NCBI RefSeq assembly: GCF_009602705.1
Contig: NZ_VSWH01000001.1
Coordinates: 1,860,001-1,924,000, forward strand
DNA from: Chryseobacterium vaccae
GTDB lineage: Bacteria > Bacteroidota > Bacteroidia > Flavobacteriales > Weeksellaceae
Direction of reading: 5' to 3'
DNA length: 64,000 bases
Part shown: in pieces, positions 13,857-34,934 of the stretch
Numbering within the stretch: the stretch's first letter is position 1
Layout of the letters: each line of letters opens with the position of its first letter
The notes under the pieces: model-generated
Database searches by the model: none
What the model saw: only the letters and a program-made list of their open reading frames with translations
Told to the model about the DNA's origin: nothing
Translations under genes and position numbers: made by a program

Positions 13857-13887
13857 CAAAAGGGGAATTTGCCTAAACAAACTCCCC
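13857..13887 (-). terminator. Terminator overlapping the traD end
   Basis: On the minus strand GGGGAGTTTG pairs with CAAATTCCCC (13887-13878 and 13871-13862), followed by TTTTGTTATT. It ends the traA-B-D transcript and shows that the traE-Q genes need a separate promoter. Confidence 0.75.
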
Positions 13888-14490: not shown

Positions 14491-14499
14491 AAAATGATA

Positions 14500-14895: not shown

Positions 14896-14899
14896 AGTC

Positions 14900-17983: not shown

Positions 17984-18067
17984 TATTCTTTTCCAAGATG
18001 CTACCCTTATAAATATGTCCTAAGAGCCAAAGCCAGCCAACAGATGCTTGCAACGGCGCATTTATAG

Positions 18068-20110
18068 TTGAGAATACCTAATCCTGTATTTATGCCTCTA
18101 AAATGTGATATGCAGGGTGAAGACGATTTAAGAGGGCTTGCCAAAATCATGGCATTTATGCGAGCGGTCAGCATTATTGTAGTATTAATGCATCTGTATT
18201 GGTTTTGTTACGGATTTTTTGCACAGCGACAATGGACACTGGAACTCGTCAATAAGATACTTTATAATTTTAACAAAACAGCAGGGTTATTTTCTCATGC
18301 CATTTACTCTAAGCTCTTCGCTATTATATTGCTAGGTTTGAGTTGTCTTGGTACAAAAGGCGTAAAGAATGAGATAATCACCCGGAAAAAAATTAGTATC
18401 GCTTTTTCTATTGGTTTTGTCCTATTCTTTTTAAACTCAATTATTTTACAACTTGATACCAGCTTTACAGCTGTACTTTATATTCTATCTACCGGCTCCG
18501 GATACATTTTACTGATGCAGGCAGGAGTCTGGACAGGCCGTTTACTGAAAACGAATTTGATGACCGATGTTTTTAACAATGAGAACGAAAGTTTTCAACA
18601 GGAGACTCAATTACTCTATAACGAGTACTCTGTTAATCTTCCAACCAAGTTCTATTATCAGGGAAAGTGGCATCAGGGATGGATTAATGTGGTTAATCCG
18701 TTTCGTGCCACCATTGTCTTAGGAACCCCGGGCTCAGGAAAATCATACGCCATTGTCAACAACTATATCAGACAGCATATCGAAAAAGGATTTTCGATGT
18801 ACATCTACGATTTTAAATTTGATGATCTGTCTACTATTACTTACAATCATCTTATCAATCATTTCGATGCTTATACAGTAAAGCCGAAATTCTATATCAT
18901 CAACTTTGACGACCCTAGAAAAAGTCATCGTTGTAATCCCTTAAATCCTAATTTTATGACGGATATATCGGATGCGTACGAAGCTGCCTACACCATCATG
19001 TTAAACCTTAACAGAAGCTGGATACAAAAACAGGGCGATTTCTTTGTTGAGAGTCCTATCATACTGCTAGCTGCCATCATATGGTTTCTTAAAATTTATA
19101 AGAACGGCAAATACTGCACTTTTCCACATGCTATTGAACTGTTGAACAAAAAATACAAAGATGTTTTTACGATATTAACATCTTATTCTGAATTAGAGAA
19201 CTACCTCTCTCCTTTTATGGATGCATGGCAGGGCGGTGCACAGGATCAGTTGCAGGGGCAAATCGCGTCTGCAAAGATTCCTTTGTCAAGAATGATCTCA
19301 CCACAATTGTATTGGGTAATGACTGGAGATGATTTTTCTTTAGATATCAATAATCCTGAAGAACCCAAAATATTGTGCGTAGGAAACAATCCGGATCGTC
19401 AGAACATTTATTCTGCCGCGTTAGGATTGTACAATTCAAGAATTGTTAAGCTGATCAATAAAAAAGGACAGTTAAAGAGTTCTGTGATTATTGATGAGCT
19501 TCCCACTATTTATTTCAGAGGCTTGGATAATTTAATTGCAACTGCCAGAAGTAACAAAGTTTCTGTATGTCTCGGATTTCAGGATTTTTCCCAATTGGCC
19601 AGGGACTATGGGGACAAGGAAAGTAAGGTTATTCAGAACACAGTAGGAAATATCTTTAGTGGGCAAGTGGTTGGAGAAACAGCAAAAACCTTATCTGAAC
19701 GTTTTGGAAAAGTACTCCAGAAAAGACAAAGTATATCCATCAATCGCAATGATACTTCAACCTCCATCTCTACCCAATTGGACAGTTTGATTCCTGCTTC
19801 GAAAATCTCAACCCTGACACAGGGATTTTTTGTCGGTGCTGTATCAGATAACTTTGATGAAAGGATTGATCAGAAGATCTTTCATTCGGAGATTGTTGTG
19901 GATACAATTAAGCTTTCTCGGGAGGCGAAAGACTTTCAGAAAATACCAAAGATCCGATCTTTCACTGATATAGACGGAAATGATCTGATGCAAAAACAGA
20001 TTGAAGAAAATTACAAAGGAGTCAAGGCAGATATTCTTAGCATTGTCACCAATGAGATGGACAGAATAAAAAATGATCCCGGCTTACAGCACTTAATGAA
20101 AAATGATTAA
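18068..20110 (+). CDS. mobC: Type IV coupling protein MobC (VirD4/TraG-like)
   Basis: A 680-residue coupling ATPase that brings the relaxase-DNA complex to the transfer channel. Several membrane helices lie in the first 170 residues. Walker A 'LGTPGSGKSYAI' is at about residues 219-230, Walker B 'SVIIDELPTIYF' near 475, and a TraM-recognition-like region follows. The frame starts with TTG at 18068; in-frame ATGs at 18092 and 18110 ('MQGEDDLRGL') are also possible, and the last resembles family N-termini best. It follows mobB by 84 bases. Confidence 0.92.
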   Translation: MRIPNPVFMPLKCDMQGEDDLRGLAKIMAFMRAVSIIVVLMHLYWFCYGFFAQRQWTLELVNKILYNFNKTAGLFSHAIYSKLFAIILLGLSCLGTKGVKNEIITRKKISIAFSIGFVLFFLNSIILQLDTSFTAVLYILSTGSGYILLMQAGVWTGRLLKTNLMTDVFNNENESFQQETQLLYNEYSVNLPTKFYYQGKWHQGWINVVNPFRATIVLGTPGSGKSYAIVNNYIRQHIEKGFSMYIYDFKFDDLSTITYNHLINHFDAYTVKPKFYIINFDDPRKSHRCNPLNPNFMTDISDAYEAAYTIMLNLNRSWIQKQGDFFVESPIILLAAIIWFLKIYKNGKYCTFPHAIELLNKKYKDVFTILTSYSELENYLSPFMDAWQGGAQDQLQGQIASAKIPLSRMISPQLYWVMTGDDFSLDINNPEEPKILCVGNNPDRQNIYSAALGLYNSRIVKLINKKGQLKSSVIIDELPTIYFRGLDNLIATARSNKVSVCLGFQDFSQLARDYGDKESKVIQNTVGNIFSGQVVGETAKTLSERFGKVLQKRQSISINRNDTSTSISTQLDSLIPASKISTLTQGFFVGAVSDNFDERIDQKIFHSEIVVDTIKLSREAKDFQKIPKIRSFTDIDGNDLMQKQIEENYKGVKADILSIVTNEMDRIKNDPGLQHLMKND

Positions 20111-20116
20111 ATAGTG

Positions 20117-20150
20117 AAACCTCAAATACCAAACGATTTGAGGTTTTTAT
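20117..20150 (+). terminator. Terminator after mobC
   Basis: AAACCTCAAAT (20117-20127) pairs with ATTTGAGGTTT (20136-20146), followed by further T residues. It separates mobC from the convergent rteC-like gene. Confidence 0.85.
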
Positions 20151-20162
20151 TGGGTATTTATG

Positions 20163-21008
20163 TTACTCAGCATCATTGTTCATAAAATATTGATTCAAAT
20201 TATCACTCACCAATTGAAGGAATTTGGTTGGTCCCTGTTTTCGGTTACGGATTTCAAAGATGGTTTTATGAAAATTACCCAAATCGCAATCCAATGACTT
20301 TTCTGTAAATTTTATGACCTCGCTTAACTCGATATTACCACCGTTAAAACAACGCATCTGGTAAAGCGCATAGATAAGCTCTATAAGACCGACCTTTGAT
20401 CCCGACCAGCTAAGAGGAGAAAATACTTTTGCAGTAAAGTTATCATTCGAACTTTCAATTTGCTTTTTTAAATACTGATCAAATTGCTGATTGGAAATAA
20501 ATCTGGCGATCATATGATCGTGGGAAGTTGTAAAACTTGGATCATAGTTATAAAACCCGGATGATAGCTTCATCTTCAAATCATAAGAATTACGGACAAA
20601 TATTTTATGATCAAGATAGGTCGCTTCTCGTTTATAGTAACTGTAAAATTCAGAATGCTCCAAATAAAAGTTTTTCAATTTTTCCTGTTCTGCTTCATAA
20701 TATTTTTTTAAAGTCTTATTTCCGGCAGCCGGTTTATGAGATTCAATATCCAATACTGCAGAATAATAAATAAATTTTGAGATAAACTGCGGTTTCAGTT
20801 TTTTAAAAAACAATACCTCTTCAGCAATGTGATCAAAATGGTGGTTTGAAACCAGAAGTTTTAATTTCCTTATCGACTCATCAATAATAAGTAATGCCTT
20901 TTCCGAAGTTTTAATCAGATCATTTCCGTCAGTGTTGACTTCGTTAATCTTTAGATCCAGATCCTCTAATAATTGTGAAGTTCTTTTAAAAATAGTTTTT
21001 GTTACCAT
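20163..21008 (-). CDS. rteC: RteC-domain protein
   Basis: A 281-residue helical protein matching the RteC family: 'FFKKLKPQFISKFIYY', 'YYEAEQEKLKNFYLEH', 'SWSGSKVGLIELIYALYQ' and a C-terminal 'IFEIRNRKQGPTKFLQLVSDNLNQ' in parts. In CTnDOT, RteC activates excision genes in response to the RteA/B system. No rteA or rteB is seen here, so control must differ or the partner genes lie elsewhere. It stands alone on the minus strand between the mob genes and the cargo locus. Confidence 0.88.
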   Translation of the reverse strand: MVTKTIFKRTSQLLEDLDLKINEVNTDGNDLIKTSEKALLIIDESIRKLKLLVSNHHFDHIAEEVLFFKKLKPQFISKFIYYSAVLDIESHKPAAGNKTLKKYYEAEQEKLKNFYLEHSEFYSYYKREATYLDHKIFVRNSYDLKMKLSSGFYNYDPSFTTSHDHMIARFISNQQFDQYLKKQIESSNDNFTAKVFSPLSWSGSKVGLIELIYALYQMRCFNGGNIELSEVIKFTEKSLDCDLGNFHKTIFEIRNRKQGPTKFLQLVSDNLNQYFMNNDAE

Positions 21009-21054
21009 GTCCTTTTTTCAGAAATTTACAAAAATTACCTAAAGCATTACATAA

Positions 21055-22758
21055 TCAACTAATACCCAGCTCCTTTTTCCGATTCTTTATATAATCAGTA
21101 GGTCTTATCCCATTGATATCAAAGAACAGATTTGAAAAGTTCTGACGTGCAGCTATACCGCATTCTTCGGCCAATGCTTCGATAGTATAGTTTAAATATT
21201 TACTGTTGGTATTAAGTAAGTTAGTGATATAATTGATTCTCAGTTCGGCCATGTATTTATTAAAATTCATCCCTTTTTGTTCATTGATATAAACCGAAAG
21301 ATATTGGGAATTGGTTCCCAGCTTTAAAGCAATACTTTTCTGCGTAATCCCTTTCTTTCTGAAATACTGTTCCTGCTCAAACTTCTGAAGCTTTTCTTTT
21401 ATTTCTAAGGCCATTTCCGGGGTAAGAGAAGTCTTTCTTACAGGGAGCTCTATCATTTCTTCTCTTAAAACATCATTGATATTATATTTTCCTTCAGTAA
21501 TTCTCTTTTGGAGAAGCTGATATTGCTTTTTAATCTTTTGATCTCTTCGATGCCGGACAACAAAAAAGCCAAGAATTACACTTCCTGAAGCAATCAGCAT
21601 CTGAGCAAATACTATTTTTTTGGTACTGGATCTCTCGATTTCTTCTTTTGCATCCATCAATGTACGTCGGTCAAAATCTTTATGAAGTTTCAAAGATAAA
21701 TATGGAAAATCTTTACTGATTAAACTATCTGCTTTTAAAAGCTGATTGGTATAGTACAGCTGCTTTTCGACATTCTTATCTTTATAATGATCAATAAGAT
21801 AGTGATAACTCTTATACACCTCAGGAAGTATAAAATCATGTTTGTTGAAAATAGAGTCTATTTTGTTATAACATCCTGTAGCCCTATTTATATTATCCTG
21901 CGCTTCATAAGTTTTACCCAGGTAATAATATACTACAGAAGCCCAGGCGAAATCGTTTCTGTTAAGAATAGTGGGTAAAGATTTTTGCAAGTAATCCCGA
22001 GCACCAACATAATCTTTATTATGAAATCTGGAAATTCCGATGCATTTGAGAAAATAGCTTTTTTCCAATGCAAAATCGCTATTATTGGCGGTTAACCGAT
22101 AACCCAACATACTTAAACTGTCGCTCTTGTTAAAGTTATTCAGATATCTGTTAAGTACGGTCAGTTGATGTAAGCAGTTGAGATACGCCTTCCCATAATT
22201 AAACTTTTCATTTTCATGATGGTTTTCATTCAACTTTGGCCTGTAAAATGAAATACATTCAAGAAAATGTTTCATTGCGTCATCATAATAGCCCAAATGA
22301 CTTTTTACAATTCCTAAATGATAGAGAACTTTATACCGATGGTACTCATCTTTTGAACCTTTTGAGTGGGTATAGGCTTTAATATACTCATTTAAAGCTA
22401 GCTTAAATTTTTTTTGATAAAAATAATAGATGATTCCCTTACTTAGATACTCTTTACTGATATCATCTTGGGTTCCATGCTTTAAGCTGGCAGTAAGCGC
22501 ACTATCAGCATACTTCATTTTGTTTTTAAAGTCAAATTGTCTCGCATCTCTATACCCTTGAATCAGCTTTGAAAAATTATTTTCGTTTTTTGCTTTCTCA
22601 ATGTACAGTTTTACATAGGGCATTGCATGAACGTCATCTATTTCCATTTTTTCATAATGCTTTCTAATTTCACTGAAAGTTTTTTCCTCTTTGTTTTGTG
22701 AAAATAAAAATTGTGAAAAAGTAGGAAATATGATGAGAAAGTAATAAAACTTTTTCAT
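21055..22758 (-). CDS. Membrane-spanning TPR / AraC-type transcription regulator
   Basis: A 567-residue one-protein signalling system. A signal peptide (1-20) is followed by about 350 residues of tetratricopeptide-like helices on the outer side of the inner membrane. One membrane helix spans about 382-401, then a basic linker and a C-terminal AraC-type double helix-turn-helix domain (about 470-567, with 'TIEALAEECGIA.RQNFSNLF' and 'GIRPTDYIKNRK'). It is divergent from the peptide/MauE operon. The 22-bp-period direct repeats in between are a good candidate binding site. The signal sensed is unknown; a cell-surface peptide is one possibility. Confidence 0.85.
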   Translation of the reverse strand: MKKFYYFLIIFPTFSQFLFSQNKEEKTFSEIRKHYEKMEIDDVHAMPYVKLYIEKAKNENNFSKLIQGYRDARQFDFKNKMKYADSALTASLKHGTQDDISKEYLSKGIIYYFYQKKFKLALNEYIKAYTHSKGSKDEYHRYKVLYHLGIVKSHLGYYDDAMKHFLECISFYRPKLNENHHENEKFNYGKAYLNCLHQLTVLNRYLNNFNKSDSLSMLGYRLTANNSDFALEKSYFLKCIGISRFHNKDYVGARDYLQKSLPTILNRNDFAWASVVYYYLGKTYEAQDNINRATGCYNKIDSIFNKHDFILPEVYKSYHYLIDHYKDKNVEKQLYYTNQLLKADSLISKDFPYLSLKLHKDFDRRTLMDAKEEIERSSTKKIVFAQMLIASGSVILGFFVVRHRRDQKIKKQYQLLQKRITEGKYNINDVLREEMIELPVRKTSLTPEMALEIKEKLQKFEQEQYFRKKGITQKSIALKLGTNSQYLSVYINEQKGMNFNKYMAELRINYITNLLNTNSKYLNYTIEALAEECGIAARQNFSNLFFDINGIRPTDYIKNRKKELGIS

Positions 22759-22903
22759 AGCCTGATATTTAGAACCTCACTATCTCAAAAATAAACATTT
22801 ATGTTTTAAATAAATCAAAATTCAATGAATTAAATAACAGAAAGACAAAAATCCTGTAAAACATGCAAATACAACCACTTAAACTCAGATATTCTAATGT
22901 ATT

Positions 22904-22940
22904 AATTTTAAAATTGAGACGTAACAATTTTAAAATAGAG
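22904..22940 (+). promoter_or_regulatory. Direct repeat operator upstream of peptide operon
   Basis: Two 15-base copies of AATTTTAAAATwGAG (w = T, then A) start at 22904 and 22926, a 22-base period of about two helical turns. They lie about 35-70 bases upstream of a -7 box. AraC-type activators commonly bind such repeats, and an AraC-type gene starts divergently at 22758. Confidence 0.6.
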
Positions 22941-22974
22941 CCATATAACAGTTTTTTTTAGCTTAAAAGCCGGA

Positions 22975-22982
22975 TAATTTTG
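22975..22982 (+). promoter_or_regulatory. Putative -7 box of the peptide/MauE operon
   Basis: TAATTTTG fits TAnnTTTG. It lies within a GCCGGAT (22969-22975) / ATCCGGC (23002-23008) inverted repeat and 53 bases before the first ATG. Confidence 0.5.
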
Positions 22983-23035
22983 ACAACAGAATTCTAATAT
23001 AATCCGGCCGGGATAACCAAATTAAAATTATCAAA

Positions 23036-23272
23036 ATGAAAAAGTTTATCCCATTTTTTAGCATAATGATCGCAACAGTTTGTCTACAAAACTGTACCCA
23101 TCGAGATGAAGATATGATCTCAAATAGTGAATATATTGAAAAATCAGAGTCCACAATAAATGGCTTAGTAATGAAACAGGATTCTGCTAAATCTATAGAA
23201 GTAATTGAAGATCCTGGAACAAAAGACCCTCCTGTCAGGGACGGTGATAATTGGCGGCTTACTCAGGATTAA
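23036..23272 (+). CDS. Small lipoprotein-like peptide precursor
   Basis: A 78-residue protein with an N-terminal hydrophobic segment and a lipobox-like 'VCLQNC' (Cys 20), so it is probably exported and perhaps lipid-anchored. The mature part is acidic and ends with a Pro-rich 'DPGTKDPPVRDGDNW' region. It is the first gene of an operon with the 55-residue peptide, MauE protein and DUF6520 protein. I do not know a function. The short size, export signal and redox partner gene make a secreted peptide role conceivable. Confidence 0.6.
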   Translation: MKKFIPFFSIMIATVCLQNCTHRDEDMISNSEYIEKSESTINGLVMKQDSAKSIEVIEDPGTKDPPVRDGDNWRLTQD

Positions 23273-23285
23273 AAAGCAAAAAACT

Positions 23286-23453
23286 ATGATTTCCCATACT
23301 TCCATATCAGTTACTACTGGCGTACCATGTCCAAAGAGTGGCATCTGGGAAAGTGTGGGGAATTTCAAAACAACCGTAGCCCTATTTAAGGGTGAACCGA
23401 TGCCTGAATATTGCGGATGGAAAATCAGATGGAGACTGGTTCAGGTCTGTTAA
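23286..23453 (+). CDS. 55-residue Cys-containing peptide
   Basis: A 55-residue product, 'MISHTSISVTTGVPCPKSG...', with Cys at 15, 43 and 55, the last being the C-terminal residue. The motif C-P-x-S-G-x-W, then K-G-x-x-M-P-x-Y-C-G and W-x-L suggests a compact beta fold. There is no signal peptide. The frame is open upstream to 23205, but that part overlaps the previous gene, and the ATG at 23286 follows its stop by 13 bases. The next gene starts 18 bases on. It is unnamed to my knowledge, and no function can be assigned. Confidence 0.55.
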   Translation: MISHTSISVTTGVPCPKSGIWESVGNFKTTVALFKGEPMPEYCGWKIRWRLVQVC

Positions 23454-23471
23454 ACCCAATAATAACAAGCC

Positions 23472-24992
23472 ATGAAAAACTTCCAAACTATCTTTATCAA
23501 AACTGTTTCCTGCTTTTTTATTCTATTGTTTGTTTATGCAAGTGTGAGCAAATTGTTAGATTTTGAAAACTTCCAAGTTCAAATTGCTCAGTCACCATTA
23601 CTTAGTGCTTATGCAGGTGTTATTTCTTATGCTGTTATTATTGTAGAATTAATTATTGTACTGTTATTAATTTTTCCAAGCAGTAGATTGATTGGATTAT
23701 ACTTATCAACTGCTTTAATGTCAGCATTTACGATCTATATATTTCTCATTTTAAATTACAGTGAATTTGTTCCGTGCTCATGTGGAGGAATCTTAGAAAA
23801 AATGGGATGGACTGAACATCTGATTTTTAATATTCTTTGTGTAATTATGGGAGGTTTATCAGTTCTCACCACCGAAAGAGCAAATCACAAGACTACCCGT
23901 AAAACAGCATTAATCTTAGGAATTTCCAATATGTTGAGTTGTATCCTCGTCATTGTCTTGTTTTTCAAGTCAGAACACATCATAAAACAGGAAAACAATT
24001 TTACCAGAAGGTTTCTGATGCATCCTATTTTAAAAATAAAAAGTATGGATCTGGAGAACCATTCATTTTATTTTGCCGGTGCTAAAAATGAGGAGCTTTA
24101 CTTAGCTAACCGAAGCTTACCTCAAAATATATTAGCAGTTGATTCACTTTTAAAGAAAGCTGTAAATACTAAGATTGATCTGGAGCTCAGCAAATATCCA
24201 TTTAAAAAAATAGAGATTAAAGTTAAAGATCATAATTATTATATCTATGATGGAAATGTTCCCATCATATTAAAAGGCAAATTAGGTGATACACAAAATA
24301 AAGTCATCAGTTTGAATGATGCATTCTTTAGCCAGCTTGAAATTATTGATAGTAATAAAATTGTCATACGTACTCTTTCATCTCAAACCAAAAGTTTAAT
24401 GCTGGGAACCATTTTAATCAATAACAATGGTAAAAATTTTGTGAAACTGTATCCTAATCTGCTTGAAAAGCAAATAGACGGTGTTTTTGATTCTGACGGT
24501 TATCTTTCAGCCGATCCTATAAAACCGACTGTCAGCTATATTTACAGTTATAGAAACCAGTTTCTTGTAATGAACCATTCCATGCAGCTTATTCACAGAT
24601 GGAGAACTGTTGATACGACTAAAATCGCACAGATTAAAGTAACTCCGCTCTCCAATGGAAAATCTAAAATGTCTAAACCTGCATTAAAAGTCAATGGACA
24701 TGCAATCGTATACAGAGGACTCCTATTTAACCCTGCTCAATTAAGAGGAAGGCATGAATCTTTAAACAGATGGCAGGAAAGCAAAGTCATCGACATCTAT
24801 AATACTGCATCTCAGGAATATATTGGCAGTATGTACATCGACAATATTAAAAATAACAGCATGTCAGATTTTAGAGTTACCGACGAGCATTTATACGCAA
24901 TTGTTGGAAATCAGCTGGTACAATATAAACTTACCCAGCCGCTGAAAAAACATTTCAAAAACGGGGAAGCCGAAAACCGTGTTTCAGAGTAG
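23472..24992 (+). CDS. MauE/DoxX-type redox membrane protein with C-terminal extra domain
   Basis: A 506-residue fusion. Residues 1-140 form a four-helix MauE/DoxX-like membrane domain with a 'VPCSCGG' motif (Cys 102 and 104) next to a helix end, as in MauE-type thiol/disulfide proteins. A fifth helix spans about 147-167. About 340 residues follow, rich in beta strands with repeated hydrophobic-polar patterns, possibly a beta-propeller facing the periplasm. Classical MauE has only the membrane part. Neighbours encode Cys-bearing peptides, which fits a role in peptide oxidation, reduction or handling; this is inference. Confidence 0.72.
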   Translation: MKNFQTIFIKTVSCFFILLFVYASVSKLLDFENFQVQIAQSPLLSAYAGVISYAVIIVELIIVLLLIFPSSRLIGLYLSTALMSAFTIYIFLILNYSEFVPCSCGGILEKMGWTEHLIFNILCVIMGGLSVLTTERANHKTTRKTALILGISNMLSCILVIVLFFKSEHIIKQENNFTRRFLMHPILKIKSMDLENHSFYFAGAKNEELYLANRSLPQNILAVDSLLKKAVNTKIDLELSKYPFKKIEIKVKDHNYYIYDGNVPIILKGKLGDTQNKVISLNDAFFSQLEIIDSNKIVIRTLSSQTKSLMLGTILINNNGKNFVKLYPNLLEKQIDGVFDSDGYLSADPIKPTVSYIYSYRNQFLVMNHSMQLIHRWRTVDTTKIAQIKVTPLSNGKSKMSKPALKVNGHAIVYRGLLFNPAQLRGRHESLNRWQESKVIDIYNTASQEYIGSMYIDNIKNNSMSDFRVTDEHLYAIVGNQLVQYKLTQPLKKHFKNGEAENRVSE

Positions 24993-25017
24993 GCAGCAAA
25001 TCAAATATTTTTTTATT

Positions 25018-25290
25018 ATGAAAAAAATTCTTTTTCCTGTTATCCTGGTAGCACTGGGAACAGGGTCAGCTTTTGCCACCATGTTGGCAAAGAAGAGTAC
25101 ACGAGCTTTAGAGCCGGCTTACAGAATTGTTAGCTTGGGCGGTGGTCAGTTCCAATGTGAGGATGCTGATCAGGAATGCAGCAATATCGTTTCCGGTGAT
25201 GTCTGTGAATGGGCATTGGACGACAGTGTTGAACTGCATAGAATCGGTTCAGGCACGATGTGCGGAACACCGCTTTATAAAATTCCTTAG
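25018..25290 (+). CDS. DUF6520-like secreted Cys peptide
   Basis: A 90-residue protein with a good signal peptide ('LGTGSAFA' cut near residue 20). The mature part carries four Cys (47, 54, 63, 82), enough for two disulfides. The frame is open from 24979, overlapping the MauE gene, but the ATG at 25018 gives the signal peptide and is preferred. This resembles the DUF6520 family of small Flavobacteriia proteins usually found beside MauE/DoxX genes. It is a candidate substrate or product of the locus. It is followed by a terminator. Confidence 0.68.
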   Translation: MKKILFPVILVALGTGSAFATMLAKKSTRALEPAYRIVSLGGGQFQCEDADQECSNIVSGDVCEWALDDSVELHRIGSGTMCGTPLYKIP

Positions 25291-25316
25291 TGCTTTATTG
25301 TATTAAGTATTAGATC

Positions 25317-25341
25317 AGGGACGCTATTCAGTGTCCCTTTT
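25317..25341 (+). terminator. Terminator of the peptide/MauE operon
   Basis: AGGGAC (25317-25322) pairs with GTCCCT (25333-25338), followed by TTT. It overlaps the 3' end of the convergent peptidase gene. Confidence 0.65.
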
Positions 25342-27816
25342 CATTTCTTTATCAATCCATCCTATATCTTTCCGGCTTTTCAGGTGATAGTCCCACCACT
25401 CTATGATTTTAGTATTAAGATCCTTGATGTCATCGGAATTTTTCCTGATCGTGTGTTCCTGCTTTTCATACATCAGCACCACCACCTTTTTTCTGTTTCT
25501 TAATAGTCCCATATAAAAGCCCATGGTTTGCGTTGGCGGAATATTCGTATCCTTCTTCCCCGCCCATAGCAATACCGGTGCATTCACTTTCTCAATAAAA
25601 TTGATAGGATTATTTCTGTAATACAGATCCTTATCTTCTGAAAAAGGAATTCCCATTGAAAACTGCCCGGTTTCAAATCTTGAATAGTCTGCTATTTTAA
25701 ACAGTTCATTAAATGAAAAGTAAGTATTCATAATGTCACTTAGACCTGCCCCCGAGATATAGGTTGCAAACCTTTCTGAATGGGTAGCGATAAAGTTGGT
25801 CTCATAACCACCGAATGAGTGTCCTGTTAAACCAATACGCCTGAAATCAATATTGACATTTCCCTGAATCGCATCCAGTCCGGAATGAACACAATCAAGC
25901 GCCGAAATTCCCGGACCCCTGTCATCTGAAACAATATCTGGCCGAAAAACCATGTAATCGTTCTCAAGCAATAGGCGGATATTGAATCCACTGGGTCCCC
26001 AGGCGGGATACAGGTATTTGTTGAACTCATCATGCTGAATACTGTATACCTGTACCACCAAAGGATATTTTTTTGTCTTGTCGAATTTAATGGGATAATA
26101 TAGAACCCCTTTCAGATACTTACCTTCACTATTGGTATATGAAATAACATCCTGCTGTAGGTCTATAGCTTCTTTATCATGAAGGTTGGTTGCATAAAGT
26201 ATCTTCTTTTGACCTGATGACTTGCTTTTGCTGTACAGCTTTGGAGAAAGGTTGTAGTTTTCTTCGATCGAATACATTAAATCATGCCTATCCTTATACG
26301 AGAACATTTTGATCCTGTTGCTGCTGTACGGCAGCATTTCTTTGAGTTTACCTTTATCATAAGAATAATATCCGGAATCATTATGGTCTTCTCTCCTGAT
26401 ATGAAGCATCAACGGTTGAGACATTTCAATAGTTCGTTGTGTTATCTTAAAAGATTCCATCTGATGAATCATTTTTCCAGTGTATTCATGAAAGCTGATT
26501 TTGCTGTTCTCTTGCTTGAAAACTGTTTTTACCACACCTGTTTCCAGATGATAGCTGATCAGTCGGCCTCCTCCTGTAAAGAGTAAGCTGCCATCGGGCA
26601 GAAAGATCGGATAGCTCAGTGTTGTATTATAATCAATAATTTTTTTCTGCTCTAATTGATGATCGTATACCATCCATTGATTCTTATACATCAGAAATCC
26701 AATGGTGTAACGACCACCCTTTCCTATTACCATTTCTGAAGCATTCTCAAAAACAAGTTCAAATTTATTTTCGAAAAGGTCATATCGGTATATATTCAGG
26801 CTTCGGAATCCCCGGTAATCATTATCCTCTTTGGCATTATACGTCCAAAAATAGCGTGGATTGTCTGTCGCTATATAGACCTGCATTGATTTGGGAGAGA
26901 TTGAATGAATTTGATTGTTTTTAACATTCCATAGGCTATACTGATGATCGGTCCATTCTTGGTCCTTATTACGCAGATACTTGTCTCCCCCATACCATAT
27001 TTCTAGTTTTTCTATTTTCTCAGGAGTTTTCTTGACGGAAATATCAATCAAAAAAGTTTCGGAATGACCTGCTTCAGTTACTTTAATGCTTTGGGCTTCT
27101 CCTAGGCTGATCTGGTCGTTATAAAACAGTTGTCCGTCTGATATTCTTAACAATCTTGCCCTGATCTTTCCATTGGAATCTGTTTTTTCTTTTTCCTTTA
27201 GGACAATAAATCTCTCTGATTCTAAAAGATCCATCGCAACAATGTTAGCTGCAGTAGAATAAAGCAGTTTCATAGCGCTGCCATTCCATTTCAATATTTT
27301 ATGAAATCCTCCACTTTTAGCAAGAATATAAACCTGTCCTTGCTCCGAAATAGTATAGTTCAATGTTCCTGCCTCATCGTGACGCACTTTTCCTTGGGAA
27401 TTATAAATTTTCAGGTTTTTATCAGTACCCAATATTACATATTGCTTCAGGGGTTCATTGGCGTTGCAGCGCTGTACACTACCATAAATTTCTCTTTTTT
27501 TTGACTTCAGATCAATGAATTCAGCCCTGCCCGGTCCTGAAGCAAAAACAGCATGATTATTCAGAAAACTGATGTTGCTCTTTTTTAAAATGGTATCGGA
27601 TGGGCTTACTGCTGATTGACGGTCAAACACAAAAACTGAATCAGAATTATTCGCGTACATTTTGGTCAGCAAAACGAATCGCTGATCATCGGATACTTTC
27701 ATCTGACCAATCATTGTTGAGAACCGTGACATCCACTGGTCCAATTCCTTAATCGTTCTCTGCGCTTTATAGCAATGCAGAGAACACAGCAGAATAATAA
27801 AACAATACACTCTCAT
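25324..27816 (-). CDS. S9-family (prolyl oligopeptidase-type) secreted peptidase
   Basis: An 830-residue serine peptidase. The start at 27816 ('MRVYCFIILLCSLHCYKAQ') gives a signal peptide; the longer open frame to 27882 lies inside susD. The first two thirds look like a beta-propeller. The C-terminal alpha/beta-hydrolase domain shows the nucleophile elbow 'GHSFGGYE', an Asp in 'AGKKDTNIPP' and a His in 'EKQEHTI'. The TAATG overlap with the susD stop shows translational coupling. It would cut peptides, probably at the cell envelope, beside a TonB-dependent importer. Confidence 0.88.
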   Translation of the reverse strand: MRVYCFIILLCSLHCYKAQRTIKELDQWMSRFSTMIGQMKVSDDQRFVLLTKMYANNSDSVFVFDRQSAVSPSDTILKKSNISFLNNHAVFASGPGRAEFIDLKSKKREIYGSVQRCNANEPLKQYVILGTDKNLKIYNSQGKVRHDEAGTLNYTISEQGQVYILAKSGGFHKILKWNGSAMKLLYSTAANIVAMDLLESERFIVLKEKEKTDSNGKIRARLLRISDGQLFYNDQISLGEAQSIKVTEAGHSETFLIDISVKKTPEKIEKLEIWYGGDKYLRNKDQEWTDHQYSLWNVKNNQIHSISPKSMQVYIATDNPRYFWTYNAKEDNDYRGFRSLNIYRYDLFENKFELVFENASEMVIGKGGRYTIGFLMYKNQWMVYDHQLEQKKIIDYNTTLSYPIFLPDGSLLFTGGGRLISYHLETGVVKTVFKQENSKISFHEYTGKMIHQMESFKITQRTIEMSQPLMLHIRREDHNDSGYYSYDKGKLKEMLPYSSNRIKMFSYKDRHDLMYSIEENYNLSPKLYSKSKSSGQKKILYATNLHDKEAIDLQQDVISYTNSEGKYLKGVLYYPIKFDKTKKYPLVVQVYSIQHDEFNKYLYPAWGPSGFNIRLLLENDYMVFRPDIVSDDRGPGISALDCVHSGLDAIQGNVNIDFRRIGLTGHSFGGYETNFIATHSERFATYISGAGLSDIMNTYFSFNELFKIADYSRFETGQFSMGIPFSEDKDLYYRNNPINFIEKVNAPVLLWAGKKDTNIPPTQTMGFYMGLLRNRKKVVVLMYEKQEHTIRKNSDDIKDLNTKIIEWWDYHLKSRKDIGWIDKEMKRDTE

Positions 27817-29192
27817 TAATAACCTAAATTTTGAGGATTCAGATGGGTATTGAGCAGCAGTTCCTGTTGTGGAAGAGGCCATACTTTATGCTTATCTTTC
27901 CAGTTGGGCTTAGTCTGCTGTAGTTCATTAAGCTTTTCTGCTCTTTTCAAATCAAGAAAGCGATGTCCCATTTCTGTAAAAAACTCTTTTCTGTTTTCAT
28001 TAAGGATTTCTTCAAGAAGCTGCTGTTGTGTAACAGCACTGCCAAGCAATGGCTGTCCCGCTCTTTGTTTGATCGGATTAATAAACGGTAAAGCCTCCGT
28101 CGTTTTATTTTGCTGTGTCAGAGCCTCTGCCAAAAGCAAATAAGCTTCTTCAAGTCTGAAGACAATGGAATTTTCTGTGGAGTTGGCAGATCTTGCTTTG
28201 TATTTTTCTGCTCTGTACCAGGTGTTACCCCCTACAGTAACCACTCCCATCCAATATTGCTTGCGAAGGTCTCCATTCTGAAATGAGCTGACCAAAGATG
28301 CGGAAAGCGCCATAGAGGTCGGAGCAACATTAGCAAAATAGTAAATCGTTGCTTCCCTTACCGCATCCCCATTGTTTTTAGGTCTGAGCTGCCAGATAAT
28401 ATGGCTGCCATTTTTAAGAAAGACCTTAGTAATATCATTTTGAAACTGATAGAGCGGACTCTGAACAACTGTTTTCAAGGTGGCTTCTGCCTCCATCCAT
28501 TTCAGCTGCTGCATCTGAACCTTGCCGAGAAGAAGCTGCGCTGCTTTTTTATTGATATAGATGCGTTCATTATGACGGTAGGTATCGGAAAGCAGTTCAA
28601 TAGCTTCTTTTATATCAGATTCAATTCTCATCAACACTTCTGCAGAAGATGTTTTTGAAATGCTCTGATTGATCATGTAATTGGTTGTCACAGGATACGG
28701 AATATCCCCGTAAACCTGCTGAACGTAGAAAAAGAGTAAAGAACGGATGACCAGGGTCTCCCCTTTTATCCTTGCTTTATCAGCTTCCGGAATATGATGC
28801 GCCCCTTCCAGCCCTTCGAGTATGGAATTGCTGACATATATTTTCTGATACGCATTATTCCAGAACGAACTTACAAACTGATTGGAATCAATCTGTGTAT
28901 TATTGGACAGTTCAGGCAATCCATTGGTGGCACTGACTGCATAGTAGGTCAGGTCATCAGTGTAGAGACCCAAAAGCCTTCCGCTTTGATCACCCGTAAC
29001 AGGCGATGATTCCCACAATCCGGCATACAATCCTGATAATACTGCGTTGGCAGTCTGGGTATCACTGAAGACGGTTTCTGACAGTATTTGGTTGTCAGGT
29101 AATTCCACTTCAAGAATTTTTTCACACGATACGGCGATGCTCATCAGATAAATGAGCGCTGCCATTATTATAATATTGAATATTGATTTCAT
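27816..29192 (-). CDS. susD: SusD/RagB-family outer-membrane lipoprotein
   Basis: A 458-residue nutrient-binding lipoprotein with a signal peptide and lipobox ('SIAVSC', Cys 23). SusD-type helices follow ('ANAVLSGLYAGLWES', 'AKARIKGETLVIRSLLFFYVQ' in parts), and the C-terminal SusD signature is 'RKEFFTEMGHRFLDLKR'. It forms the lid over the SusC channel encoded upstream (56-base gap). The linked S9 peptidase suggests a peptide rather than a sugar as ligand, similar to RagA/RagB; no glycan-degrading gene is nearby. Confidence 0.9.
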   Translation of the reverse strand: MKSIFNIIIMAALIYLMSIAVSCEKILEVELPDNQILSETVFSDTQTANAVLSGLYAGLWESSPVTGDQSGRLLGLYTDDLTYYAVSATNGLPELSNNTQIDSNQFVSSFWNNAYQKIYVSNSILEGLEGAHHIPEADKARIKGETLVIRSLLFFYVQQVYGDIPYPVTTNYMINQSISKTSSAEVLMRIESDIKEAIELLSDTYRHNERIYINKKAAQLLLGKVQMQQLKWMEAEATLKTVVQSPLYQFQNDITKVFLKNGSHIIWQLRPKNNGDAVREATIYYFANVAPTSMALSASLVSSFQNGDLRKQYWMGVVTVGGNTWYRAEKYKARSANSTENSIVFRLEEAYLLLAEALTQQNKTTEALPFINPIKQRAGQPLLGSAVTQQQLLEEILNENRKEFFTEMGHRFLDLKRAEKLNELQQTKPNWKDKHKVWPLPQQELLLNTHLNPQNLGY

Positions 29193-29247
29193 TGCTTTTA
29201 TATTGGATTAAATAATGTGACGGTCTTCGGTTTCCGTTAAGTATTCA

Positions 29248-32241
29248 TCACAGCGTAAGCTGAATACCAAATGAGTACGTTTTCAAGGGAGGCAGGAATC
29301 CAAATGTGGTCATCTCGGGATCAATTCCAAAGAACTTCGTCCACGTCAAAAGGTTCTGCCCCTGAAAATAAAGCTTGACTTCCCTGAAAACACCTGAATC
29401 CAAAGAAAGATTATAGATAAGCTGCACATTTTTAAGTCTTATAAATGAAGCGTCAGAAACACTGGCATCACTATTTTGAAACAGGCTGTGCGAAGAATTA
29501 GACGTGGAGCGGTACGGCATATAAAGTCCGTTGGGATTCGTAGGCGACCATACATTCAATGCCTCTACTGGGAGATTCGCCATGATGCCCGGAGAAGACA
29601 TTGCTGAATTATAGTTTCGGCTCTGTTGCTTTACAAACTGCAGCAAAAAAGACAAGTTCCAGTTTCGGTAACGTAATTCATTGCTTAGTCCTCCGTAAAA
29701 CTGCTGTCCAAGGTTTCTGATTACCTGCCTGTCATCCGGTGATGCGATCTTTCCATCGCCATTGAAATCGGTAAAATCATAGACCAAGGTATTGGGGTTT
29801 ACCCCCTGAAGCTGGTAGAGTTTAACAATGTTCACAGGCTGTCCGATAACATAGGTATTGGCATAGGATGAACCTTCAAGTCCCGGAAAGGAAATCAGCT
29901 TGTTTCGTGGAATAGTGATATTGAATGAGCTACTCCATGAAAAATTTCCTTTACTGATAATTTTGCCACTGGCCTCAAATTCAAGTCCTGTATTCTGAAT
30001 GACTGCATCCAGATTAGCCAGTACACTGCTGAATCCCGTTACCGAGGAAAGCTGGTAGCCTACCAGTTGATTTCCGGAACGGTTTCGGTAATACGCAGCG
30101 CTTAGATTAAGCCTGTTGTTAAATAGCCCCAATTCAAGAGCGACTTCTGTTTTAACGGTTCTTTCCCAGCTGAAATCAGGATTGTAAAGTTTTGTTGGAG
30201 CCAATCCGGTGCTGCCATTATAGATGAGGTTGGCGGTGGCAAACGTATCCAGGTATTGGTAATCCCCGATATTATCACTTCCCGATGAACCATAACTTGC
30301 TCTCAGCTTTCCAAAACTGAGCCATGAGATGTTCTTCATAAAGTCTTCTTCCGAAAACAGCCATGCTGTCCCAATGGCACCGAATATTGCATATTTATTA
30401 TTCGGACCGAATCTGCTGCTGCCGTCTCTTCTTCCTGTAAGATTAAGGATATATTTTTTATCGTACTGATAGTTGATTCTGCCGAAAAAAGCACCGTATC
30501 GGTATTCAGTACTGATCTGGTCAAGGACGACTTTATTGATTGCAGCCCCTATATTATAGATTAATGCATTACTTTCAAAACCTGATCCCTGAATTTCACC
30601 CCGGTCTGAAACATCTCTCTGATAGGTCCCTCCCACCAGTACATCAAATTTATGGTTACCTGTTTTGTACATCCAGCTTATCTGTGGCTCTATCACCATA
30701 GACAGTCTGTTCTGATTGGATTTTGAAGACATCGAATTGAGGGATGTTGCTCCTGCAGAAGGACTATACGCCGTACTCGGACGAAGTGACCATTCTTCAA
30801 AAGTCTGATAAGTCAAGCCACCGTTGAGCTTAAGCTTAAAGTTTTTAAAAGCTTCATATTCCATGCTGATGTTGTTAAGGAATTGCAGATTGTTATTGGA
30901 ATAAGAGTTCTCAAAGGCAGCTGCGGGATTCGTAAACGTATTGTTCTCCCAGTTAAGGTTACCTTCTGAATCATAGAGAGCAGGAGCATTGGGAGCCAGA
31001 ATATACGACTGTCTTGTTGCATCAGAAGTAATCAGGTTATTGTCTGTTGCTGTAAAAATATTCGATGAGTTGAAACTGAACTTCCTGTCAGCAGACCTAT
31101 GGCTGATATTTCCTGAAATGGTATTGGTTCTGTACCTGAAATCCCTGCCGAACACCGTGGTTTGTTCGTTATGACCAAGACTGAGCAGGAAATTGGTATT
31201 TTCGCCTCCCCCACTGAGTGACAACTGGGTATTAGACAGGGCGGCATAATGACCAATCAGTTCTTTTCTCCAATCCGTATAACGGTTGGAATCCCAGGTT
31301 CCATTGATGTCATAGGCATTAGCGGGGTAGACAGAGATATTGCTGTTGGCGAATGCCTGCTTTCTCATATCAAGATACTGAGCAGTATTCATCATTTTAA
31401 GGTTTGAAATGGCATGGCTCAGGCCATATGAAGAGTTCAGGGTCAGTTTTACCTTTCCCCTTTTCCCTTTTTTGGTGGTCACCAGTACCACTCCGTTAGC
31501 ACCCCGTGAGCCATAGATAGCAGTAGCGTCCGCATCTTTCAGGATCTCGAAACTTTCAATATCGTTAGGATTGATACTATTCAGCGGATTGATGTCTGCA
31601 TTGGGAAGGATACTTCCAGCATAGGAGGAACTGATTCCCGTACCCACGGGAACACCATCAATAATATAAAGTGGCTGATTGCCATCGATTACAGAATTGC
31701 TTCGAGTTCGAAGGCTATTTCTGCCTCTGATCTGAATATCAAATCCACCCCCGGGAGTTCCTGAATTTTGGGTGATACTGACTCCTGCCATTCTTCCCTG
31801 TGCTGCTGACAATACATTGGTCACAGGCTGATTTTCTATATCTTTTGCTGAAACTTTGACGATACTACCGGTTCTTTCTTTGTCTTTAACCTTGTAGTAG
31901 CCAGCGTTGAGAATAACTTCTTCGATTCCCTTTACTTTGTGTTCTAGACTGATATTGACGACGGTCTGATTAGTGAGTGTAAATTTCTCTTCTGCATAAT
32001 CAGGATGTCTGAACAATAGGATGGTATTTTCTGCTGAAACCTGTACTGTATAGGTCCCGTTGTTGCCGGTCATGGTTACCTGGTCACTACCCTCTTGGGA
32101 AATTACGACTCCTGAGAGTGGTTTACCTAATGATGTAACGGTACCGGAAATGGTGCGTGTTTGGGCTTTTGTGGTGATGTTTACAGCGGTAAACATGAGC
32201 CCAAAGAAAATACCTCCTATATGGTAATAGGAATTTTTCAT
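29248..32241 (-). CDS. susC: SusC/RagA-family TonB-dependent transporter
   Basis: A 997-residue outer-membrane transporter. A signal peptide (about 1-27) is followed by a carboxypeptidase-regulatory-like beta domain (about 30-110), the plug domain ('VSAKDIENQPVTNVLSAAQG' region and 'GIEEVILNAGYY'), and a long TonB-dependent barrel ending in an aromatic-rich strand ('YSFGIQLTL'). It is the first gene of susC-susD-S9 peptidase. No separate promoter was seen close to the start; the structured RNA upstream may be its leader. Confidence 0.93.
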   Translation of the reverse strand: MKNSYYHIGGIFFGLMFTAVNITTKAQTRTISGTVTSLGKPLSGVVISQEGSDQVTMTGNNGTYTVQVSAENTILLFRHPDYAEEKFTLTNQTVVNISLEHKVKGIEEVILNAGYYKVKDKERTGSIVKVSAKDIENQPVTNVLSAAQGRMAGVSITQNSGTPGGGFDIQIRGRNSLRTRSNSVIDGNQPLYIIDGVPVGTGISSSYAGSILPNADINPLNSINPNDIESFEILKDADATAIYGSRGANGVVLVTTKKGKRGKVKLTLNSSYGLSHAISNLKMMNTAQYLDMRKQAFANSNISVYPANAYDINGTWDSNRYTDWRKELIGHYAALSNTQLSLSGGGENTNFLLSLGHNEQTTVFGRDFRYRTNTISGNISHRSADRKFSFNSSNIFTATDNNLITSDATRQSYILAPNAPALYDSEGNLNWENNTFTNPAAAFENSYSNNNLQFLNNISMEYEAFKNFKLKLNGGLTYQTFEEWSLRPSTAYSPSAGATSLNSMSSKSNQNRLSMVIEPQISWMYKTGNHKFDVLVGGTYQRDVSDRGEIQGSGFESNALIYNIGAAINKVVLDQISTEYRYGAFFGRINYQYDKKYILNLTGRRDGSSRFGPNNKYAIFGAIGTAWLFSEEDFMKNISWLSFGKLRASYGSSGSDNIGDYQYLDTFATANLIYNGSTGLAPTKLYNPDFSWERTVKTEVALELGLFNNRLNLSAAYYRNRSGNQLVGYQLSSVTGFSSVLANLDAVIQNTGLEFEASGKIISKGNFSWSSSFNITIPRNKLISFPGLEGSSYANTYVIGQPVNIVKLYQLQGVNPNTLVYDFTDFNGDGKIASPDDRQVIRNLGQQFYGGLSNELRYRNWNLSFLLQFVKQQSRNYNSAMSSPGIMANLPVEALNVWSPTNPNGLYMPYRSTSNSSHSLFQNSDASVSDASFIRLKNVQLIYNLSLDSGVFREVKLYFQGQNLLTWTKFFGIDPEMTTFGFLPPLKTYSFGIQLTL

Positions 32242-32599
32242 AGATTTGTAAAGGTTTTTAATTTTTTAAAAGATTAATTACTGAACTACGCTCTTTCCCG
32301 TTGGTCTCCAAACTGTATGGGAAGGGGCTTTTTCCTTTCTTCTGATTTTAAGTTGAGTAGTTTTTTTGATTCATTTTGTAGATAAAGACTTTCCTGATGC
32401 CCTTTGGTATGAAAAAGGACTGGTGAGGTTCTATAGCAGTGACCTTAGGGCACCGGAAAGAATTTAATATAAATGAATCTGTGTTCCCGTGTAAGCTTTT
32501 TAAAGCCGCAATAGGTTGTACACTCCTATTGTATCGTGTAGTCTGATACTATTTTTGAAAGCGGGCTTAGATTTTTATGTAGAGATGGGCGAACTGCAT
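32242..32599. other. Long susC leader region
   Basis: A 358-base stretch without a gene. On the plus strand TTCCC/GGGAA and TTGG/CCAA pairings near 32295-32335 are followed by a T-rich tract, so a small hairpin is possible. I found no TAnnTTTG box facing susC, which suggests that susC is read from further upstream. Confidence 0.35.
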
Positions 32600-32802
32600 T
32601 GAAAAAAGACGGCGTGGGTACTCTACATTATCCGATCCGGGGTACTGGTATACCTTACATGCAGATAAGAGAGCCCACGCCTAGGTCGTGAGCTTAGTAC
32701 TTATCATCTCGCATGTTAAAAATTACCAGTTTTCGAATCGAGATTCTAAGCAATAGCTTCTATATTCTTTGAAGTATCGCAAAGTTACATTTTCTGTAAC
32801 CT
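32600..32802 (-). ncRNA. Structured RNA / attenuator-like leader upstream of susC
   Basis: On the minus strand a long paired structure spans 32681-32611: GGCGTGGG with CCCACGCC, then CTCT/AGAG and TTATC/GATAA inside the same stem. It is followed by GTCTTTTTT, so it ends like an intrinsic terminator near 32600. A TATATTTG -7 box lies at 32816-32809, giving a start near 32802, and the first bases can form a GTTAC/GTAAC hairpin. The product could be a stand-alone RNA of about 200 bases or a leader that controls read-through into susC. No Rfam family was identified. Confidence 0.5.
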
Positions 32803-34927: not shown

Positions 34928-34934
34928 CTCTTTT

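What the first reader, a model, noticed from the sequence alone, without database searches (positions are those of the whole stretch)
20163..32802. Possible undescribed peptide system: TPR/AraC sensor, tiny peptides, MauE redox fusion, SusCD and S9 peptidase
On one mobile element lie a membrane-spanning regulator, a divergent operon with a lipoprotein-like peptide, a 55-residue Cys peptide, a MauE fusion and a 4-Cys secreted peptide, and a convergent TonB importer with a secreted peptidase. Together they resemble a make-oxidise-sense-import circuit for peptides. I know of MauE/DUF6520 neighbours in Flavobacteriia but no described system of this composition.
Basis: inference. Interest (0 to 1): 0.8.

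Follow-up and report, generated by a model that had tools for sequence, protein, structure and literature searches.

The report
Swappable secreted-peptide and importer gene cassette
On a mobile element of a Chryseobacterium-like bacterium sits a five-gene cassette, shared by many related bacteria, that encodes a small four-cysteine secreted peptide beside its own outer-membrane importer and peptidase; its specificity part is swapped as a block between strains, which suggests a private peptide that cells make, recognise and take up.

Summary
The genes are there, and their association is not chance. The unit is a mauE-propeller fusion, a 4-Cys secreted DUF6520-like peptide, then convergent S9 peptidase, SusD and SusC. 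It is complete and in order in 68 of 72 loci with enough flank. A peptide-first search gave 25 of 25 loci with the MauE fusion upstream; 15 of 15 read further had SusCD.

Protein distances form linkage blocks: regulator, RteC and the 55-aa Cys peptide, loosely joined by the MauE membrane domain and SusC N-terminus; against propeller, peptide, S9, SusD and SusC plug/barrel. In one relative the junctions lie inside mauE and susC. Peptide-signal loci such as agr are built this way (recalled). Two wirings of regulators exist.

The peptide gene's leader is Rfam DUF805b RNA, for which I find a covarying pseudoknot.

Best reading: a private peptide, oxidised, then taken up and cut by its cognate SusCD-S9, which reports to the regulator. 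Function is inferred. I found no description in the searches made. Interest 0.75.

The parts
20163..21008 (-). RteC-type ICE regulator (backbone block)
   Evidence: PF09357 209.5 bits; distances track the regulator, r 0.88; in 39 of 80 related loci
21055..22758 (-). TPR + one membrane segment + HTH_18 (AraC-type) regulator (backbone block)
   Evidence: PF13424 and PF07719 over cut-off, HTH_18 30.9 bits just under its cut-off 33.6; hydrophobic segment 381-402; three paralogues in the own genome at 26-36% identity; in 52 of 80 related loci
23036..23272 (+). lipoprotein-like peptide, divergent partner of the regulator
   Evidence: found in 28 of 80 loci, always divergent from the regulator (28 of 28); my ORF filter undercounts it (it dropped the window's own copy); no family over cut-off
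23286..23453 (+). 55-aa CPxSGxW peptide with 3 Cys, no obvious signal peptide (backbone block)
   Evidence: relatives in 35 of 80 loci; tracks regulator r 0.87, not secreted peptide r 0.21
23472..24992 (+). MauE fusion: redox-type membrane domain with CSCGG, fifth helix, C-terminal beta-propeller-like domain
   Evidence: PF07291 106.4 bits; AlphaFold2 mean pLDDT 82, helices to residue 174 then beta strands; Foldseek matches of propeller type
24960..24995 (+). DUF805b RNA (RF02914) across the mauE stop codon, leader of the peptide gene. P1 24961-24964 with 24977-24980; pseudoknot P2 24969-24971 with 24992-24994
   Evidence: 44.2 bits, gathering 35.6; at the same place in 80 of 80 related loci; pair counts
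25018..25290 (+). 90-aa secreted peptide precursor, 4 conserved Cys, DUF6520-like
   Evidence: exactly 4 Cys after residue 24 in 80 of 80 open peptides, window included; A2; PF20130 22.3 bits, sub-threshold; 53 of 53 A2 members match at E<=0.01
25324..27882 (-). S9-family peptidase, presumably periplasmic
   Evidence: PF00326 77.7 bits; Ser, Asp and His align with solved S9 peptidases 8wt1 and 7ep9 (catalytic roles recalled)
27816..29192 (-). SusD-like surface lipoprotein
   Evidence: PF14322 84.8 and PF07980 72.6 bits
29248..32241 (-). SusC-like TonB-dependent outer-membrane protein; the N-terminal CarbopepD_reg_2-like region tends to go with the backbone, plug and barrel with the cassette
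   Evidence: TIGR04056 674.2 bits; identity profile; distance blocks; RagA among solved relatives

Best explanation
A private-peptide circuit carried by an integrative conjugative element. (1) mauE and the peptide gene are read as one message, and the pseudoknot RNA across the mauE stop codon controls how much peptide is made (position and structure supported, role and co-transcription inferred). (2) The 90-aa precursor is exported by its signal peptide; its four cysteines are paired with help from the MauE membrane domain, and the fused propeller holds this particular peptide (inferred). (3) The mature peptide, alone or with a bound cargo, is released and taken back by the cognate SusD-SusC pair, and the S9 peptidase cuts it in the periplasm (inferred). 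(4) The SusC N-terminal region passes occupancy to the regulator: TPR/HTH type here, FecR/ECF sigma in the other wiring (inferred). Shown: the specificity part (propeller, peptide, S9, SusD, SusC plug and barrel) is inherited and exchanged as one block, while the generic ends tend to stay with the regulator.
For: Fixed gene order in 68 of 72 loci, and in a second family (f3) found from the peptide alone: MauE upstream 25 of 25, SusD and SusC 15 of 15, S9 14 of 15. Distance correlations over 25 loci: among the cassette parts 0.70-0.92, regulator against cassette parts 0.25-0.40. Block swap: L069, L070, L072 and L076 keep regulator and RteC at 92-97% identity to the window while MauE is 48-50%, peptide 30-50%, S9 32-35%, SusD 48-59%, SusC 61-69%. 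Junctions in L072: inside mauE near codons 105-120, inside susC between about codons 120 and 240. SusC N-terminus is 28% identical between the two wirings against 58.5% for the barrel. Solved SusC relatives include RagA, a peptide importer (function recalled). S9 triad retained.
Against: No test of ligand, oxidation or signalling. Four loci with full flank (L040, L043, L094, L104) have MauE and peptide but no S9-SusCD beside them, and two with shorter flanks (L082, L092) show other genes there, so the peptide can do without the importer, or these are decaying. Linkage alone would give correlated distances without contact between the proteins. The jackknife differences for the regulator side are weak (SusC N minus barrel 0.295, se 0.225; MauE N minus propeller 0.276, se 0.208). 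MauE_N and SusC_N correlate at only 0.35 with each other, and MauE_N at 0.37-0.50 with cassette parts, so the generic block is loose. In L070 the left junction lies at or before the start of mauE. An STN signalling domain was seen in 1 of 5 type-2 SusCs, sub-threshold, and not in a sixth.
Confidence: 0.45

Rival explanations
1. A peptide-foraging locus. SusCD-S9 imports and cuts environmental peptides, as RagAB does; MauE-propeller and the DUF6520-like protein are accessory parts, for example a disulfide-stabilised small subunit of the SusCD complex. Allele swapping reflects phages or antibodies that attack the surface parts.
For: RagA is among the solved relatives; four RagAB alleles with variable binding sites are described in the abstract of PMC11817032. 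Other SusC-like genes are common in the own genome (15 further matches, some of them pieces of one gene). Barrel and SusD vary as surface parts would.
Against: Does not by itself explain why the MauE propeller and the mature peptide (33% mean identity) co-vary with the barrel (r 0.86 and 0.79), nor loci with MauE and peptide but no SusCD.
Confidence: 0.25
2. A bacteriocin-type competition system: the 4-Cys peptide harms near relatives, entering through SusCD of the same type, and the S9 peptidase protects the producer by cutting it.
For: Mobile, polymorphic, secreted Cys peptide; the same RNA leader precedes short leader-type, mostly double-glycine peptides in 17 of 40 RNA sites looked at; S9 resembles lasso isopeptidase weakly (43.6 bits).
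Against: A producer that also carries its own dedicated importer would be unusual (recalled); the isopeptidase score is far below its cut-off of 400; peptides are near identical within a close group (98-99% in L031 and L032).
Confidence: 0.15
3. A pheromone that controls transfer or exclusion of the conjugative element itself, with RteC and the TPR/HTH regulator as the output.
For: RteC, regulator and Cys peptide form one linkage block next to mobilisation-type genes; RteC recurs in 39 of 80 loci, and 33 of the 35 loci with the Cys peptide have it.
Against: None of the 26 loci of the second wiring has RteC, and 11 of them show no match to any of the ICE proteins tested within the flank held.
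Confidence: 0.1
4. Chance neighbours, cargo genes that merely landed together.
For: Mobile elements do collect unrelated cargo.
Against: Order and convergent orientation kept at about 50% MauE identity across several genera and families.
Confidence: 0.01

Closest known systems
RagAB of Porphyromonas gingivalis (SusCD-type peptide importer with alleles)
   Same: SusC/SusD pair; RagA matches the window SusC at 7.2e-63; allelic variation of binding parts (abstract of PMC11817032)
   Different: No self-encoded secreted peptide, MauE-propeller, S9 or RNA leader is mentioned in that abstract; here propeller, peptide, S9, SusD and barrel co-vary
agr / comQXP pherotype loci of Gram-positives (recalled)
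   Same: Maturation protein, peptide and receptor part vary together while downstream regulators stay constant
   Different: Gram-negative, outer-membrane SusCD in place of a histidine-kinase receptor; no autoinduction shown
Lasso peptide isopeptidase AtxE2 with TonB uptake (recalled)
   Same: S9-type peptidase beside a TonB-dependent protein and a peptide gene
   Different: Isopeptidase model scores 43.6 against a cut-off of 400; the peptide has a signal peptide and 4 Cys; I noticed no lasso maturation genes but did not search for them
DUF6520 (PF20130)
   Same: Signal peptide and Cys pattern; all 53 A2 members match at E<=0.01
   Different: Window member is below the curated cut-off; Pfam gives no function
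DUF805b RNA (RF02914)
   Same: Matches above gathering score
   Different: The Rfam structure line shows one hairpin; here a second, crossing helix covaries

Membership tests
DUF6520 (PF20130) | Curated whole-protein cut-off 25.4 bits | tested here: not met
   22.3 bits for the window peptide; relatives match better, best 1.1e-11
DUF6520 (PF20130) | Signal peptide plus 4 conserved Cys in relatives (as seen in A2) | tested here: met
   signal peptide judged by eye
MauE (PF07291) | Domain over curated cut-off | tested here: met
   106.4 against 27 bits
MauE (PF07291) | Redox activity in peptide folding | not testable with these tools
   CSCGG invariant in 28 sequences is only suggestive
SusC/RagA importer | TIGR04056 over cut-off and SusD partner | tested here: met
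   674.2 against 368.25 bits; SusD PF14322 and PF07980 over cut-off
SusC/RagA importer | Peptide transport | not testable with these tools
   no assay
TonB-dependent transducer with FecR/ECF sigma | FecR and sigma gene next to SusC | tested here: not met
   not found at the window; present in 24 of 80 related loci
Atxe2-type lasso isopeptidase | NF033523 cut-off 400 bits | tested here: not met
   43.6 bits
S9 peptidase | PF00326 over cut-off and Ser/Asp/His aligned | tested here: met
   77.7 against 22.6 bits; alignment
agr-like pherotype locus (works like) | Peptide, maturation part and receptor part exchanged as a block under a constant regulator | tested here: met
agr-like pherotype locus (works like) | Peptide induces its own operon | not testable with these tools
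   no expression data
DUF805b RNA (RF02914) | Score over gathering 35.6 | tested here: met
   44.2 bits
CTnDOT-type integrative conjugative element | RteC and Tra/Mob genes around the cargo, defined ends | tested here: inconclusive
   RteC tested; Tra/Mob names recalled from the sequence; ends not mapped (one search showed no clear terminal repeat)

The most novel reading that the evidence does not exclude
Bacteroidota possess a widespread, mobile class of self-made peptide ligands: a peptide, its dedicated oxidising and holding membrane protein, an outer-membrane SusCD receptor and a peptidase form exchangeable, pherotype-like alleles. They would be the first SusCD systems, as far as I recall, that make their own substrate, with the SusC N-terminus as the plug-in to whichever regulator is resident and a pseudoknot RNA, shared with bacteriocin-like peptide genes, setting the peptide dose.
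Probability: 0.35. Interest if true: 0.92.

Novelty: new variant of a known kind. Interest (0 to 1): 0.75.

Why it matters
SusCD pairs are known as importers of food (recalled). A SusCD pair that travels with its own secreted 4-Cys peptide, and whose ligand-facing half is swapped together with that peptide, would be a private signal or private carrier in a phylum with few known peptide signals (recalled). It is common in its family: 157 of 296 genomes have a match to the MauE fusion (E<=1e-5, some perhaps to the MauE domain alone) and 139 to the peptide (E<=0.001). The swap junctions name the parts expected to touch the peptide, so the model can be tested directly. The pseudoknot gives a named RNA of unknown role a concrete structure to test.

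Tried and rejected
Chance co-occurrence: rejected. One seven-part circuit including regulator and Cys peptide: rejected as a single inheritance unit. Lasso isopeptidase membership: rejected on score. Immunity protein (TaeI) for the 55-aa peptide: the window frame hit at E 0.0071, 2 of 4 relatives at 0.057 and 0.19 and 2 of 4 not at all, against a cut-off of 450 bits; dropped. Known fold for the peptide: mature part modelled at pLDDT about 90, no PDB match at E<=0.001. Plasmids: no match for the MauE fusion in 72,556 records. PF20130 search of the own genome found nothing, a limit of that model. Papers: DUF6520 0; NVEALA 0; MauE with SusC and SusD 1, where the MauE hit is an author name; searches seen as listings (three papers of them opened). 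The paper I recalled for DUF805b (doi 10.1093/nar/gkx699) is not held and no held paper uses that name, so whether the pseudoknot was noted before is unknown. My patterns misparsed L103 and L106, L182 and L184; these were read by eye. The own RNA model found only 2 of 25 second-family loci at E<=0.01, because the loop and tail letters differ there; the copies were found by pattern. In one search the script read one strand only; one search repeats it on both. For alignment A4 two of five measures did not beat the shuffles (265/500 and 470/500); for P2 on A3 two stood at 22/500.
Full report
What is in the window. The stretch 20163-32802 holds RteC, a TPR/HTH_18 regulator with one membrane segment, a lipoprotein-like peptide, a 55-aa Cys peptide, a MauE fusion, a 4-Cys secreted peptide, and a convergent S9-SusD-SusC set. 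The genome is 5.13 Mb in two contigs; the closest named relatives of this locus are Chryseobacterium, so the window is Chryseobacterium-like by inference. To the left lie genes that look like ParA, mobilisation and transfer proteins; to the right lies what looks like a type I restriction set (names recalled from the sequence). I did not map the ends of the element; one search showed no clear terminal repeat.

The cassette is a real unit. An alignment of the MauE fusion (A1) found 406 places in named genomes, of which the best 80 were kept. In 72 of these 80 the sequence held runs at least 8.3 kb past mauE, and 68 of the 72 have peptide, S9, SusD and SusC in the window's order and orientation. 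The four exceptions (L040, L043, L094, L104) keep MauE and peptide without S9-SusCD beside them; two loci with shorter flanks (L082, L092) also show other genes there. Of 81 loci, window included, 80 have an open peptide gene, and all 80 have exactly four cysteines after residue 24. In the remaining one, L073, the gene has an internal stop. The loci include Chryseobacterium, Kaistella, Empedobacter, Cloacibacterium, Flavobacterium, Pedobacter, Sphingobacterium, Chitinophaga, Draconibacterium and Sunxiuqinia.

An independent start from the peptide. In 296 genomes of the family, 157 match the MauE fusion (E<=1e-5; the weaker ones may be the MauE domain alone) and 139 the peptide (E<=0.001, a few near that limit). 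Each output listed 150 hits; 138 of the 150 in each list lie next to a member of the other list. In 395 genomes drawn from the phylum, 20 have the peptide at E<=1e-5: five of the window's genus and 15 of one other family (f3; 14 of one genus, 1 of another), which I take for Flavobacteriaceae by inference. It was thus rare in the rest of that sample, although named loci show it in Pedobacter, Sphingobacterium and others. The 30 loci returned include 25 from f3; all 25 have the MauE fusion directly upstream, in two cases split. Of these I read 15 more widely: all 15 have SusD and SusC (SusC in two pieces in L201) and 14 have S9.

Two blocks, not one circuit. I compared protein distances across loci. 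Of 71 complete cassettes 62 remained after removing those over 95% alike in MauE; of 31 that also have regulator and RteC, 25 remained, and 21 of these have the Cys peptide. RteC and regulator agree at r 0.88, and the Cys peptide with them at 0.84-0.87. Propeller, mature peptide, S9, SusD and SusC plug or barrel agree at 0.70-0.92. The regulator agrees with these at only 0.25-0.40. The SusC N-terminal 125 residues agree with regulator and RteC (0.60, 0.63) and not with the peptide (0.22). The MauE membrane domain is intermediate (0.60 with regulator, 0.43 with peptide, 0.35 with SusC N). Jackknife errors make the peptide-side contrast for SusC firm (0.57, se 0.162), the one for MauE moderate (0.357, se 0.203), and the regulator-side contrasts weak (0.295, se 0.225; 0.276, se 0.208).

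Junctions. In L072 the window's DNA is matched at 88% from 13476 to 23830, that is into mauE; inside mauE identity is 92-95% to about codon 105 and then falls to 44-61%. In susC it is 82-93% for the first 180 codons and 52-67% after that. L070 shows the same swap with the left junction at or before the start of mauE (67% in its first window) and the right one in susC after about codon 120-180 (81-94%, then 57-73%). L069 and L076 have the same blast pattern but were not profiled. The regulator and RteC of these four are 92-97% identical to the window while the peptide is 30-50% and S9 32-35%. The cassette of L069 is instead close to that of L065 (peptide 83%, SusC 82%), which has a different regulator (37%). 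So the parts that would face a ligand move together, and the parts that would face TonB or the regulator tend to stay.

Two wirings. Thirty-five of 80 loci have the 55-aa Cys peptide, all 35 with the TPR/HTH regulator; none of the 28 with enough flank has FecR/sigma, 7 could not be judged. Twenty-six of 80 have instead a 260-aa HTH_18 protein directly before mauE; none has both; 19 have neither. FecR and an ECF sigma gene lie beside SusC in 24, 23 of them of the second kind. Eight of the 26 also have a TPR/HTH regulator somewhere in the locus. RteC is in 33 of the 35 and in none of the 26. The SusC N-terminus is 28% identical between the two kinds and 61% and 45% within them, whereas the barrel is 58.5% between and 60% and 64% within. 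CarbopepD_reg_2 is over its cut-off in 3 of 4 type-1 SusCs examined, the window's own being just under it; it was not seen in six type-2 SusCs, one of which gave a sub-threshold STN hit. The lipoprotein-like peptide is divergent from the regulator in 28 of 28 loci where it was found.

The proteins. The MauE fusion is modelled with helices to residue 174 and beta structure after that (mean pLDDT 82). Foldseek returns propeller-type proteins (type recalled), among them the Bacteroides protein 3s9j, at low superposition (TM by query at most 0.40 in the rows shown). CSCGG is invariant in 28 sequences. The mature peptide is modelled at pLDDT about 90 as a beta-rich domain, with no PDB match at E<=0.001. 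S9 keeps Ser, Asp and His. Mean identity over 62 cassettes: SusC 58%, SusD 53%, MauE 50%, peptide 38% (33% in the mature part, 55% in the signal part), S9 32%. The peptide and the peptidase change fastest, as expected if one cuts the other, though other causes are possible.

The RNA. Rfam DUF805b lies at 24960-24995 with 44.2 bits; the mauE stop codon is inside it. A model built from 58 of the 81 copies finds it at the same place in 80 of 80 related loci (E<=1e-8; most of them helped to build the model) with one further weak match. It lies 15-27 bases before the peptide start by pattern (L073 is a fallback value). It is read by mauE in different frames, giving tails such as GEAEN, GKPKT or RGSRKP, or lies wholly after the stop, so the conservation is of nucleic acid. 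The Rfam line shows one hairpin. I propose a second helix, loop 24969-24971 with tail 24992-24994. In 58 sequences it is paired in 174 of 174 cells, with compensatory change in 2 of 3 pairs; two of five measures were reached by 22 of 500 shuffles. An alignment of 25 of those and 24 of 25 second-family copies, where the helix can have 4 pairs such as GATC with GATC or GACT with AGTC, shows compensatory change in all 4 pairs, with 52 such cells against 18.4 in shuffles and at most 6 when slid; two of five measures there do not beat the shuffles, and the outer pair is unpaired in 23 of 49. Relatedness within the two groups inflates such counts. The own genome has 10 matches at E<=0.001, 6 of them over the gathering score. 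Of 40 RNA sites of the own and related genomes looked at, 17 are followed by a short leader-type peptide gene (46-76 aa, mostly with a double glycine), 2 by a cassette peptide, 4 could not be read, and the rest by other genes (counted by eye). So it is a shared leader, not specific to this cassette.

How it most likely works. A private peptide is made under the RNA leader, exported, oxidised with the MauE domain and held by the propeller, released, taken back by its own SusCD, cut by S9, and reported through the SusC N-terminus to the resident regulator. The unit, block exchange, wirings and RNA structure are supported by the calls; every functional step is inferred. I give it 0.45. Rivals are peptide foraging (0.25), competition peptide (0.15) and an element-transfer pheromone (0.1).

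Against the literature. DUF6520 occurs in 0 held papers, NVEALA in 0. MauE, SusC and SusD together occur in one, where MauE is an author name. The passages I saw of two ICE papers mention TonB-dependent receptors as cargo (PMC6491836; PMC8768576) but not this set. RagAB alleles are described in the abstract of PMC11817032. Searches were seen as listings only. Most subscription papers are not held.

Noticed in passing
L111, L112, L124, L127, L133, L142, L144, L146, L147 and others (centre of each locus): The DUF805b RNA precedes genes for short leader-type, mostly double-glycine Cys peptides in 17 of 40 sites looked at; it may mark a wider set of secreted or bacteriocin-like peptides, with loop and tail again complementary (for example TCC with GGA).
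   Followed up: partly
window 24960-24992: The end of the mauE coding region is dictated by the RNA: the same bases give GEAEN, GKPKT or RGSRKP tails in different frames.
   Followed up: yes
L094:13131-18600: A MauE-peptide pair without S9-SusCD lies beside genes that look like Cas2, Cas1 and a 1408-aa Cas9 (names recalled from the sequence).
   Followed up: no
L195 (two peptide genes at 9098-9373 and 9700-9972): One distant locus has two peptide genes in tandem after mauE.
   Followed up: no
L073 (after mauE): The peptide gene has an internal stop in a locus that keeps S9, SusD and SusC.
   Followed up: no
window 33290-40383: What looks like a type I restriction set follows the cassette; the protein at 36090-37388 has an internal 84-base repeat, as specificity subunits do (recalled).
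   Followed up: no
window 51056-56094: An XRE/LexA-like regulator, a Y-family polymerase-like protein and a DnaE-like alpha subunit in a row, resembling a mobile mutasome cassette (recalled; not tested).
   Followed up: no
window 586-2193: A recombinase-like gene (619-2193, minus) overlaps a tRNA-Leu (586-666, plus) (name recalled), a likely integration site.
   Followed up: no
G000:C1 178178-179800: A 36%-identical paralogue of the TPR/HTH regulator elsewhere in the genome, near a SusD-like gene (recalled) and a SusC match at 172235.
   Followed up: partly
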